From positions 1-64,000 of the forward strand of contig JAJDXM010000055.1 of assembly GCA_022823225.1 (NCBI GenBank): DNA of 64,000 nt. The letters are read 5' to 3'. The stretch comes from Gemmatimonadota bacterium (GTDB lineage: Bacteria > Gemmatimonadota > Gemmatimonadetes > Longimicrobiales > Gaopeijiaceae). This document shows, in pieces, positions 10,637 to 13,259 of the stretch. The notes beneath the pieces were generated by a model. That model had not been told where the DNA came from and searched no databases. It saw only the letters and a program-made list of their open reading frames with translations. Position 1 is the first letter of the stretch. Each line of letters starts with the position of its first letter. Made by a program: the position numbers and the translations under genes.

Positions 10637-11827
10637 ATGTCCAGATCGAGCCCGACGCGCGGGACCGACGCGAACGCCGCCGCGATAGCGCCGCTGACGG
10701 GAATCCGGGTGGCGGATTTTTCGCAGAATCTCGCTGGACCCTTCGCCGCGCAGATTCTGGGTGACCTGGGCGCGGACGTGATCAAGGTGGAGCCGCCCGG
10801 CGGCGATCCCGCCCGACAATGGGGACCGCCGTTCGTGGGCGGCCAGAGCGCCCTCTTCCAGGTCGTGAACCGGAACAAGCGCAGCGTGATCCTCGACCTG
10901 AAGACGGACGCCGGCCGCGCGGGGGCGCTCACGCTGGCGACCGGGTCCGACGTGGTGATCCAGGCGCTGCGGCACGGTGCGGCCGACCGTCTGGGGATCG
11001 GCGCCGAGCGGGTGCGCGCCGCCAACCCCGCGGCGATCTACGTGTCGGTGACGGCGTACGGGCCGGATGGTCCGCTGCGCGACGAACCCGGGTACGACCC
11101 GCTCATGCAGGCGCGCTCGGGCCTCATGTCGGTGACGGGCGCCCCCGGGGGTGAACCCACGCGCTCCGGCACCTCCATCGTCGACCTCGCCACGGGGATG
11201 TGGACGGCGATCGCCGTGATGGGCGCGCTCATGGAGCGCCGGAGCACCGGACGCGGCTGTCATGTCACCACCTCGCTCCTCGATACCTCGCTCGCGTGGA
11301 TGTCGTACCACCTTACCGGATACCTCGCCACCGGGGTCCTTCCCGGGCCGATGGGCACCTCAATCGGCATGATCGCACCGTATCAGGCGTTCCCGTGCAC
11401 CGACGGTTCGGTGATGATCGCGGCAGGCAACGACGACATCTTCGGGCGCCTGTGCGATGCGCTCGGGCTTCCGCAGTCCCGGCACTCAGACTACGCGGAC
11501 AACGCGTCGCGGGTTGCAAACAGCGAGCGACTGGCGGAGTTGATCTCTGAGCGGACCCGCCGGCATTCCACGGACGCGCTCCTTCGCCTCCTCAGTGACC
11601 ACCGCGTGCCCGCGGCCCCCATTCACGATGTCCCGGCGGCGCTGGAGGACCCCCAAACCGCGTGCAGCGGCATGCTCCGGCCGTGCGATCATCCGCTTGT
11701 CGCGGACTATGTGGATGTCGCGATGCCGGTCATGTGGGATGGCCGCCGAGCCGCGTTGCGGCGGGTTCCCCCGGGCGCGGGTGAGCACCAGCAGGAGCTG
11801 TTCCCGGAAACGGAGAGCGGGTCGTGA
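10637..11827 (+). CDS. CaiB/BaiF-type (family III) CoA transferase
   Basis: 396 residues. IRVADFSQNLAGPFAAQILGDLGADVIKVEPP is the family III signature. NRNKRSVILDLK, SVTAYGPDGPL and EPGYDPLMQARSG follow; the Asp of GYDP corresponds to the catalytic aspartate of formyl-CoA transferase. It moves CoA between carboxylic acids, with an unknown acid here. An AGGGGG site precedes the ATG. The stop overlaps a possible GTG of the following protease frame. Confidence 0.9.
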   Translation: MSRSSPTRGTDANAAAIAPLTGIRVADFSQNLAGPFAAQILGDLGADVIKVEPPGGDPARQWGPPFVGGQSALFQVVNRNKRSVILDLKTDAGRAGALTLATGSDVVIQALRHGAADRLGIGAERVRAANPAAIYVSVTAYGPDGPLRDEPGYDPLMQARSGLMSVTGAPGGEPTRSGTSIVDLATGMWTAIAVMGALMERRSTGRGCHVTTSLLDTSLAWMSYHLTGYLATGVLPGPMGTSIGMIAPYQAFPCTDGSVMIAAGNDDIFGRLCDALGLPQSRHSDYADNASRVANSERLAELISERTRRHSTDALLRLLSDHRVPAAPIHDVPAALEDPQTACSGMLRPCDHPLVADYVDVAMPVMWDGRRAALRRVPPGAGEHQQELFPETESGS

Positions 11828-11973: not shown

Positions 11974-13047
11974 ATGTCCAGAAAGAACGCCATCCGTTTC
12001 GGAGCCCTGGCGCTCGCGGTGGCGCTGGATACGTACCTCCTGTTGCCGGTCGGCGGCCCGGGCGGCGCCAAGGGAACCCTGGCCACCCTCGCCTATGAGG
12101 ACCTGGCCGCGGCCATCGCCGTGCAGGAACACCACAATCCGGACCTGCTGGCCATGCCGGGGGTGGCCGGGACGGCGGTGGGGTTCGACCTGAGCGGCAA
12201 GCCGGTCGTGAAGGTCTACCTGACCCGCGAGAATGTGGCCGGAATCCCGGTCAGCCTCGATGGCCACGCGCTTGTCACCGAGGTCACCGGCGCCTTCACC
12301 GCCTGGGGCGACATGCCGCCCGAGGCCGCCGCTGCGGCCAACGACGAGACCGACCCGAAACGATCCTTCGCCCGCCCGGTTCCGATCGGGGTTTCAACCG
12401 GCCAGGTGGATGTCACGGCGGGCACGATCGGCGCAAGGGTCACCACCGGCGCGGAAGTCTTCGCGCTGTCGAACAACCACGTCTACGCCAACCGCAACGA
12501 GGCCAATCCGGGCGACAAGATCCTGCAGCCGGGACGCGTGGACGGCGGCATCGACCCGACCGACGCGATCGGCACGCTTCACGAATACGAGCCCATCCGG
12601 TTCTGCAGCCCCTTCCCCAACTGCCCCGCCAACCGCATCGACGCCGCGATCGCCGCAACGACGACCGACAACCTCGGCAACAGCACTCCCTCCAACGGCT
12701 ACGGCACCCCGCAGAGCAGGGTTCTGGAAGCCCGGCTCGGCATGGAGGTCCAGAAATACGGACGCACCACCGGTCACACCCACGGCAAGATCAGCGGATT
12801 GAACGCGACGATGAACGTCGGTTTCCGTGACAACACGGCGCGCTTTTCGGGCCAGATCGTGATCTCCGGAGGAGGCTTCTCCGGCCCGGGCGACTCGGGG
12901 TCCCTGATTGTCGCGGGGGGGACCGGCCCCGACAGCCGCCGCCCGGTCGGCCTTCTCTTCGCGGGCAGCCAGTCCAGCACGCTCGCCAATCCGATCGGCC
13001 TGGTCCTCGAAAGGTTCGGTGTCCGGATCGACGGGACCGACCGGTGA
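11974..13047 (+). CDS. Trypsin-fold serine protease with N-terminal propeptide-like domain
   Basis: 357 residues from MSRKNAIRFGALALAVALDTYLL, chosen because it gives a signal or anchor helix; upstream starts at 11824, 11893 and 11944 remain possible. Residues about 35-105 form a small domain (GVAGTAVG, KPVVKVYLTREN, GIPVSL, TEVTG). The protease core has ALSNNHVYA for the His, NRIDAAIA for the Asp and GFSGPGDSGSLIV for the Ser, a plausible catalytic triad. It is predicted to be exported or membrane-tethered. The next gene is coupled by GTGA and repeats the N-terminal domain alone. Confidence 0.75.
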   Translation: MSRKNAIRFGALALAVALDTYLLLPVGGPGGAKGTLATLAYEDLAAAIAVQEHHNPDLLAMPGVAGTAVGFDLSGKPVVKVYLTRENVAGIPVSLDGHALVTEVTGAFTAWGDMPPEAAAAANDETDPKRSFARPVPIGVSTGQVDVTAGTIGARVTTGAEVFALSNNHVYANRNEANPGDKILQPGRVDGGIDPTDAIGTLHEYEPIRFCSPFPNCPANRIDAAIAATTTDNLGNSTPSNGYGTPQSRVLEARLGMEVQKYGRTTGHTHGKISGLNATMNVGFRDNTARFSGQIVISGGGFSGPGDSGSLIVAGGTGPDSRRPVGLLFAGSQSSTLANPIGLVLERFGVRIDGTDR

Positions 13048-13259
13048 GCGGCTCGGTTGAGGCTGCCCATGACCGGCTGACCCGCTCGGTCATCGGGAAG
13101 AAGGGCGTGGCCGGGACCGCAATCGGCAGTCGGGGAGGAAGGCCCTGCCTCAAGGTGTACCTGGAGAAGAACGACCGGGCGCTTCGGAGGAAGCTGCCGA
13201 GCAGTGTGGGCGGGATTCCCGTGGACGTCGAGGTCACCGGGAAGATGAATCGCTGGTAG
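13044..13259 (+). CDS. Stand-alone copy of the protease N-terminal domain (possible inhibitor or chaperone)
   Basis: 71 residues starting with a GTG that overlaps the protease stop (GTGA). KGVAGTAIGSRGGRPCLKVYLEKN and GGIPVDVEVTGKM align with the protease N-terminal domain motifs GVAGTAVG, KVYLTREN, GIPVSL and TEVTG. There is no signal peptide, so it probably acts in the cytoplasm. By analogy with propeptide-type inhibitors it could hold the protease inactive or help it fold; that role is inference. Confidence 0.6.
   Translation: MSGSVEAAHDRLTRSVIGKKGVAGTAIGSRGGRPCLKVYLEKNDRALRRKLPSSVGGIPVDVEVTGKMNRW

What the first reader, a model, noticed from the sequence alone, without database searches (positions are those of the whole stretch)
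11974..13259. Serine protease coupled to a free copy of its own N-terminal domain
Seen: the 71-residue protein repeats the GVAGTAxG, KVYLxxN, GIPVxxxxEVTG pattern of the protease N-terminal domain and starts by a GTGA overlap. Inference: a propeptide-like inhibitor or folding aid made in step with the protease; it has no export signal, which would suit cytoplasmic protection.
Basis: partly seen in the sequence, partly recalled or inferred. Interest (0 to 1): 0.55.

Follow-up and report, generated by a model that had tools for sequence, protein, structure and literature searches.

The report
Protease paired with its own pro-domain
In a little-studied group of bacteria, a trypsin-like enzyme is nearly always encoded next to a small protein that is a loose copy of the enzyme's own front domain, probably a dedicated brake or folding partner for it.

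Summary
The window (Gemmatimonadota) encodes an intact trypsin-like serine protease of the plant NAL1 type (11974-13047) followed, by a GTGA overlap, by a 71-residue free copy of the protease's N-terminal domain (13044-13259). This is an old two-gene cassette: of 298 genomes of the phylum, 84 hold the protease, 80 of these also a free copy, and 77 have both side by side on one strand. Of 88 free copies, 77 are adjacent. The pair recurs in a gammaproteobacterial family (7 of 7 genomes with the domain). Gene order varies, and the two kinds of domain copy fall on two sides of a single (weakly supported) tree split. The predicted fold resembles the N-terminal domain of rice NAL1 and, less securely, the pro region of alpha-lytic protease. 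Many relatives export the free copy as a two-cysteine lipoprotein; in the window's genus it has no signal and one cysteine. Best reading: a dedicated trans-acting pro-domain that restrains or helps fold its neighbour, like SpeB-Spi but for a serine protease. Binding and inhibition were not shown. New variant of a known kind.

The parts
11974..13047 (+). NAL1-type trypsin-like serine protease, 357 aa
   Evidence: Pfam PF25819 Nal1_C 26.7 bits against a cut-off of 26.1; PDB sequence matches to rice NARROW LEAF 1 (profile E 7.5e-12); model of a close relative aligns with NAL1 8pmi_A at Z 24.3 over 277 residues
11995..12051 (+). N-terminal hydrophobic segment (residues 8-26) with an acidic residue inside; no lipobox
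   Evidence: sequence; among 42 pairs of this type (five f7 loci apart) 38 carry D or E in the segment (hand-corrected)
12103..12297 (+). protease N-terminal domain (residues 44-108), homologous to the free copy
   Evidence: profile of free copies, E 1.4e-15 in this genome; coordinates
12367..13044 (+). catalytic domain; triad His169 (12478-12480), Asp223 (12640-12642), Ser308 (12895-12897); Cys211 and Cys217
   Evidence: the equivalent H, D and S are invariant in the 32 aligned relatives
12784..12867 (+). beta-hairpin just before the catalytic Ser, the place at which the alpha-lytic protease pro region docks in its own enzyme
   Evidence: strands 236-249 and 254-264 of the relative's model; sequence match of this stretch to alpha-lytic protease residues 91-153; role of the hairpin from PMC2829044. 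Docking here is inference
13044..13259 (+). free copy of the N-terminal domain, 71 aa, GTG start, no export signal
   Evidence: AF2 model mean pLDDT 90, order alpha-beta-beta-alpha-beta
13146..13148 (+). lone cysteine (residue 35) of the free copy
   Evidence: one cysteine is present in 51 of 53 distinct non-exported free copies
13044..13047 (+). GTGA overlap of protease stop and free-copy start

Best explanation
The pair is a protease with its own dedicated, separately encoded pro-domain. The free copy binds the neighbouring NAL1-type protease in trans, most likely on the catalytic domain where the protease's own N-terminal domain (or, in alpha-lytic protease, the pro region) sits. It restrains the enzyme and/or guides its folding until the enzyme is where it should work. 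In much of the phylum both partners are made as lipoproteins, so the brake travels with the enzyme. In the window's genus and several relatives the free copy has no signal, has one cysteine instead of two, and stays in the cytoplasm, where it could hold back protease that folds before or instead of export. Shown: homology, pairing, fold resemblance, compartment signals. Inferred: binding, site, inhibition or folding help.
For: Pairing: 77 of 84 protease-bearing genomes have the free copy adjacent on the same strand; of 77 adjacent copies 66 lie downstream and 11 upstream. It recurs in a gammaproteobacterial family, 7 of 7 genomes with the domain, so order changed while linkage held. Fold: the small protein's model matches the NAL1 N-terminal domain (8pn1_A Z 6.4, 64 residues) and the alpha-lytic protease pro region (4pro_C Z 6.3, 68 residues). 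N-terminal and catalytic domains together align with NAL1 at Z 24.3. The triad is invariant in 32 aligned proteases. Tree: free copies and built-in domains separate with one change among 142 rows (support only 76), so the free copy looks like an old, co-inherited paralogue. Fusions: one free copy is fused to the Pfam 'intracellular proteinase inhibitor' BsuPI (L091, E 1.8e-24) and two lie in one frame with a PEBP domain (L181, L182). Precedent: Spi, called a propeptide analogue, is encoded beside SpeB (PMC2873492, passages). Spi and staphostatins are thought to act in the cytoplasm, and in Bacteroides both C10 proteases and neighbour inhibitors are lipoproteins (PMC3462683, passages).
Against: No interaction was seen: the model of protease and free copy in one chain gave no coordinates to inspect, so docking is unknown. 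The protease already carries its own such domain and could be self-sufficient; four Ignavibacteria/Bacteroidetes genomes and one Gemmatimonadota genome, G049, have the protease and no convincing free copy. Fold matches are at Z 6-7, tied with unrelated metal-binding domains (MamB Z 6.1). No Pfam pro-domain family matched. Compartments do not always agree: five gammaproteobacterial pairs have a protease without a signal and a lipoprotein free copy. Non-exported free copies are basic (median net charge +6; window +8), which would also suit RNA or membrane binding.
Confidence: 0.5

Rival explanations
1. Assembly partner: the free copy takes the place of the N-terminal domain between subunits and sets the oligomeric state of the protease rather than blocking its active site.
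For: The N-terminal domain is a stable part of NAL1 structures, for which entries titled 'open' and 'close' are deposited (titles), and is placed alike in the model. A free domain could swap with it.
Against: No oligomer data for this protease; the partner gene is absent in some lineages with the protease.
Confidence: 0.17
2. Repurposed small protein: in the window's genus the cytoplasmic, basic, single-cysteine copy has left protease control and binds RNA, membrane or another protein; the shared operon is a leftover.
For: No signal and one cysteine instead of two; core net charge median +6 against -3 in exported copies; weak Foldseek match to the KH domain of ribosomal protein S3, E 0.012.
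Against: Linkage to the protease is as tight in this genus as elsewhere; the sequence stays recognisable at 44-70% identity across most of the family.
Confidence: 0.15
3. Substrate, decoy or reporter: the free copy is cut by the protease, and its cleavage or saturation reports on protease activity.
For: Same domain, same locus, conserved basic-hydrophobic C-terminus in the genus (listing).
Against: No cleavage evidence; in the window's genus the two may lie on opposite sides of the membrane.
Confidence: 0.1
4. No functional tie: a tandem duplication relic kept by chance.
For: The domains are paralogous and adjacent.
Against: One old split on the tree, pairing conserved across families and in a second phylum with changed gene order.
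Confidence: 0.04

Closest known systems
SpeB-Spi of Streptococcus pyogenes (operon-encoded propeptide analogue; PMC2873492 and PMC3462683, passages read)
   Same: Small gene beside the protease gene; the small protein resembles the protease's own N-terminal pro part; thought to act in the cytoplasm.
   Different: Cysteine protease of family C10; here a trypsin-fold serine protease whose N-terminal domain seems to stay in the mature enzyme, and a free copy that in many relatives is an exported lipoprotein.
Bacteroides C10 protease / staphostatin-like inhibitor pairs (PMC3462683, passages read)
   Same: Lipoprotein protease next to a lipoprotein or periplasmic inhibitor, gene either upstream or downstream.
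   Different: Those inhibitors resemble staphostatins, not the protease's own domain.
Alpha-lytic protease and its pro region (PMC2829044, passages read; action in trans recalled)
   Same: Catalytic domain of the same fold (Z about 17); pro region with a similar alpha/beta fold (Z 6.3); docking hairpin before the catalytic Ser present.
   Different: There the pro region is made in cis and cut off; here the domain seems to stay in the protease and a second copy is a separate gene. No Pfam pro-domain match.
Rice NARROW LEAF 1 (NAL1)
   Same: Same domain order and relative placement of N-terminal and catalytic domains (Z 24.3, 277 residues, 22% identity).
   Different: No free copy is known to me for the plant protein (not searched here).

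Membership tests
NAL1-type protease (Pfam PF25819 Nal1_C) | Profile match above the curated cut-off | tested here: met
   26.7 bits against 26.1, narrow
NAL1-type protease (Pfam PF25819 Nal1_C) | Ser-His-Asp triad on a trypsin-like fold | tested here: met
   (fold by the model of a relative, L005)
NAL1-type protease (Pfam PF25819 Nal1_C) | N-terminal domain placed on the catalytic domain as in solved NAL1 | tested here: met
   8pmi_A Z 24.3, rmsd 3.0, 277 aligned, model residues 8-321; the linker 79-116 has low confidence
NAL1-type protease (Pfam PF25819 Nal1_C) | Proteolytic activity | not testable with these tools
   needs an assay
Alpha-lytic protease type pro region (Pfam pro-domain, recalled as PF02983) | Pfam profile match of the free copy | tested here: not met
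   36 free copies scanned at E up to 10: only DUF6767 (5 members, best 0.01) and Urocanase_C (1), no pro-domain
Alpha-lytic protease type pro region (Pfam pro-domain, recalled as PF02983) | Same fold as the pro region | tested here: inconclusive
   4pro_C Z 6.3 over 68, 2pro_C Z 5.8 over 63; tied with MamB and others
Alpha-lytic protease type pro region (Pfam pro-domain, recalled as PF02983) | Acts as foldase and inhibitor | not testable with these tools
   needs refolding and inhibition assays
Operon-encoded propeptide-analogue inhibitors (Spi kind) | Gene next to its protease, same strand | tested here: met
   77 of 84 genomes
Operon-encoded propeptide-analogue inhibitors (Spi kind) | Homologous to the N-terminal part of that protease | tested here: met
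   E 1.4e-15
Operon-encoded propeptide-analogue inhibitors (Spi kind) | Inhibits the protease | not testable with these tools
   needs an assay
Spi family proper (inhibitors of C10 cysteine proteases) | Partner is a C10 cysteine protease | tested here: not met
   partner is a serine protease

The most novel reading that the evidence does not exclude
A whole branch of the NAL1 protease family is run by a two-gene logic in which a pro-domain-like module exists twice, once built into the enzyme and once as a dedicated free brake. The free brake was moved between compartments during evolution, gaining or losing its lipoprotein signal together with a disulfide. It implies that the N-terminal domain of plant NAL1 is itself a retained regulatory pro-domain.
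Probability: 0.3. Interest if true: 0.72.

Novelty: new variant of a known kind. Interest (0 to 1): 0.55.

Why it matters
Pro-domain-like inhibitors encoded beside their protease are known for cysteine proteases; here the arrangement appears for a trypsin-fold serine protease of the NAL1 family, with a domain that has no Pfam or NCBIfam model. If the free copy controls the enzyme, it gives a genetically encoded inhibitor for NAL1-type proteases and a direct test of what the N-terminal domain of NAL1, a yield gene in rice, does. The strict link between export signal and cysteine number in the free copies is a clean natural record of a protein changing compartments.

Tried and rejected
Rejected: chance resemblance (E 1.4e-15 and a phylum-wide pair). 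Rejected: that the domain is mainly a non-protease domain (77 of 88 copies adjacent). No sign of a defence system (no PADLOC match) or of plasmid cargo (no match of the small protein in the plasmid collection). Considered and left open: Tat export of a folded protease kept silent by a cytoplasmic copy; twin-arginine-like starts occur in some relatives but are not conserved (by eye).

Led nowhere: mixing free copies into the protease alignment, because MAFFT laid them on the N-terminal domain (A1), so A3 was made without them; promoter and terminator scan, nothing found; papers on the NAL1 structures did not turn up in the library, and six paper searches listed nothing on bacterial NAL1-type pairs, which is no proof of absence in print. 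BsuPI fusions: 298 genomes were searched with L091 and the 20 loci returned were checked: none of them has both domains in one ORF, so L091 remains a single case.

The alpha-lytic pro region and the NAL1 domain stand among tied structural matches (a designed binder ranks first at Z 7.1, MamB follows at 6.1). I did not file the free copy as a member of the alpha-lytic pro family, because the Pfam test was not met.

Automatic calls corrected by hand: lipobox in L011, L050 and L157 (false; the real start lies downstream), export of L085-L088 and L182 (signal missed by the script), protease lipobox in L012, L014 and the five f7 loci L180, L183, L184, L187, L188 (no lipobox by eye). Raw counts before correction: 33/6/5/50 (exported with two close cysteines, exported without, not exported with, not exported without) and 40/22/8/2 of 72 pairs (neither, both, only protease lipobox, only free copy exported). 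On the trees the switches are few (3 to 7 changes; 2 to 3 independent pairs on well supported branches), so these associations are not many independent events.

Full report
What is there. The window encodes, on the + strand, a 357-residue protein (11974-13047) and, overlapping its stop by GTGA, a 71-residue protein (13044-13259). The long protein is a trypsin-like serine protease of the NAL1 type: it passes the Pfam Nal1_C cut-off narrowly (26.7 against 26.1 bits), and its best sequence matches among solved structures are rice NARROW LEAF 1 and then Streptomyces proteases (profile search). Its triad is His169, Asp223, Ser308, invariant in the 32 relatives aligned. The nearest named relatives are records titled Gemmatimonadetes or Longimicrobiales.

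The repeat. A profile of free copies finds two places in this genome at E up to 0.001, the free copy (E 5.8e-31) and the protease N-terminal domain (E 1.4e-15). Without a profile the match is 36-39% identity at E 4.4e-4 and 1.7e-4. An HMM of 31 free copies hits the protease N-terminal domains of family f1 loci at about 1e-9 to 1e-13 and those of Ignavibacteria/Bacteroidetes at 1e-7 to 0.03. The domain has no good match in Pfam or NCBIfam.

The pair is old and general. Among 52 oriented loci from the first searches (some are the same genome twice), BLAST finds the free copy beyond the protease stop in 44; the eight without are L017, L018, L020-L024 and L052. L024 was later found to have one, and L017 and L052 run into locus ends. 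In the genus the free copy usually starts 6-8 nt after the stop. In an even sample of 298 genomes of the phylum, 84 hold the protease (E up to 1e-20). I took as free copies the 88 best places listed (E up to 2.2e-17), leaving out the one of them inside a protease ORF; weaker and unlisted places were not used. 83 genomes hold one, 80 hold both, and 77 hold both side by side on one strand, within 4.5 kb downstream or 3 kb upstream of the protease match. Of the 88 free copies 77 are adjacent, 66 downstream and 11 upstream; the upstream ones are all of genus g74. Seven protease genomes are unpaired (G049, G090, G099, G103, G234, G284, G300); in G099, G234, G284 and G300 a match lies near a contig end. 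Three genomes have only a free copy (G035, G158, G289).

Other phyla. In the family of a Methylomicrobium MAG, 7 of 151 genomes have the domain and all seven have a protease ORF adjacent: five with a lipoprotein free copy downstream of a protease without a signal, two with a free copy without a signal upstream. One of these two (L226) also has a degenerate second copy downstream. In contrast, four Ignavibacteria/Bacteroidetes genomes have only the protease's own domain (one further 70-aa ORF at E 0.0037 is unconvincing). So the protease can exist without the free copy.

Descent. In a tree of 142 domain copies (74 free, 68 built-in) the two classes are separated by one change, against 47 for shuffled labels, but the split itself has SH-aLRT 76 and rests on few columns. 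The simplest reading is one old separation followed by joint inheritance, not repeated recent duplication.

Fold. The AF2 model of the 71-aa protein has mean pLDDT 90 and the order helix-strand-strand-helix-strand. Foldseek gives no match at E 0.001 or better. In the VIA-align second look the list is headed by a designed binder (Z 7.1), then the N-terminal domain of rice NAL1 (8pn1_A, Z 6.4, rmsd 2.3, 64 residues, 19% identity) and the pro region of alpha-lytic protease (4pro_C Z 6.3 over 68; 3pro_D and 2pro_C Z 5.8), with MamB domains close behind (Z 6.1). Alone these would be weak. They gain weight because both families are domains of trypsin-fold proteases, and because the model of a relative's protease aligns with NAL1 over N-terminal and catalytic domains together at Z 24.3 (8pmi_A, rmsd 3.0, 277 residues), while alpha-lytic and Streptomyces proteases align over the catalytic part only at Z about 17-18. 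That model (L005, protease and free copy read through one TGA as W; mean pLDDT 79.9, pTM 0.72) has a low-confidence linker at 79-116.

How alpha-lytic protease informs the mechanism. In that enzyme the pro region speeds folding 10^9-fold, and the complex shows a beta-hairpin of the protease C-terminal domain, next to the active site, joined to the pro region in one five-stranded sheet (PMC2829044, passages). The window protease has a long hairpin in the same place before the catalytic Ser (strands 236-249 and 254-264 of the relative's model; sequence match to alpha-lytic protease residues 91-153). That the free copy uses it is inference.

Compartments. Among 94 distinct free-copy cores, after hand correction, 41 are exported and 53 are not. 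Of the exported, 38 have two cysteines a few residues apart and 3 have none; of the others, 51 have one cysteine in that sense and 2 have none (a few of the 51 carry a second, distant cysteine). No exported copy has one cysteine and no unexported copy has the close pair. The protease shows a parallel: of 72 pairs, after correction, 47 have an unexported free copy with a protease without lipobox, 22 a lipoprotein protease with an exported free copy, and 3 are mixed (L171, L045, L024). These are large counts but few evolutionary events, 3 to 7 changes on weak trees. The window's protease has a hydrophobic N-terminal segment with an acidic residue in it and a possible disulfide pair (Cys211, Cys217), so it probably faces outward while the free copy stays in. 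This topology is unproven, and the gammaproteobacterial pairs show the reverse mismatch. I therefore claim no general compartment rule beyond the cysteine-signal link.

Hints for an inhibitor role. One free copy (L091, a lipoprotein) continues into a BsuPI domain, Pfam 'intracellular proteinase inhibitor' (E 1.8e-24), and two (L181, L182) run in frame into a PEBP domain. BsuPI proteins are common in the phylum without the free copy, so this is one fusion, not a trend. Four genus members have a beta-propeller lipoprotein ending in a copy of the domain (L085-L088; Pfam run on L085 and L086 only). Against a simple inhibitor: unexported copies are basic (median +6, window +8) and exported ones acidic (median -3), while catalytic domains have median -4 and -12 in the two groups. 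Charge could serve protease binding, but also membrane or RNA binding.

Comparison. The closest known arrangement is SpeB-Spi, where the neighbour gene encodes a propeptide analogue (PMC2873492, passages). Spi and staphostatins are thought to stop prematurely active protease in the cytoplasm, and in Bacteroides both proteases and their neighbour inhibitors are lipoproteins or periplasmic, with the inhibitor gene on either side (PMC3462683, passages). A malaria subtilisin propeptide-like inhibitor exists too (PMC6993865, search listing only). The present pair works most plausibly like these, for a different protease class and with an unnamed domain.

Verdict. Observation confirmed; interpretation partly supported; mechanism probable but unproven (0.5). 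New variant of a known kind, interest 0.55.

Noticed in passing
L091:17-709 (+): Lipoprotein in which the free domain is followed by a BsuPI 'intracellular proteinase inhibitor' domain (Pfam E 1.8e-24); no second such ORF among the 20 loci returned by a 298-genome search.
   Followed up: yes
L085, L086, L087, L088: Lipoproteins with a six-bladed beta-propeller region (DUF5128/NHL in L085 and L086) that end in a two-cysteine copy of the domain, away from any protease, in four members of the window's genus.
   Followed up: partly
L181 (2348-3367, -) and L182 (1941-3770, +): Free copy in one open frame with a PEBP/YbhB-type domain (Pfam PBP).
   Followed up: partly
11995-12051 and relatives: The protease's N-terminal hydrophobic segment has a conserved D or E in its middle in most relatives of this type, odd for a signal sequence.
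   Followed up: partly
L148, L144, L178, L137: Relatives of the protease in family f4 carry long C-terminal extensions (about 230 to over 900 residues; CARDB repeats in L137 and L148), and the free-copy gene still follows.
   Followed up: no
L226: A protease flanked by a free copy without signal upstream and a shortened lipoprotein-like copy downstream.
   Followed up: no
10637-11827: A CoA-transferase-like gene directly upstream (named from recall, not scanned) is conserved in 13 of 23 loci searched; its stop overlaps the most upstream possible protease start (11824).
   Followed up: no
13146-13148 and relatives: Lone cysteine kept in 51 of 53 unexported free copies, with no known partner.
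   Followed up: no
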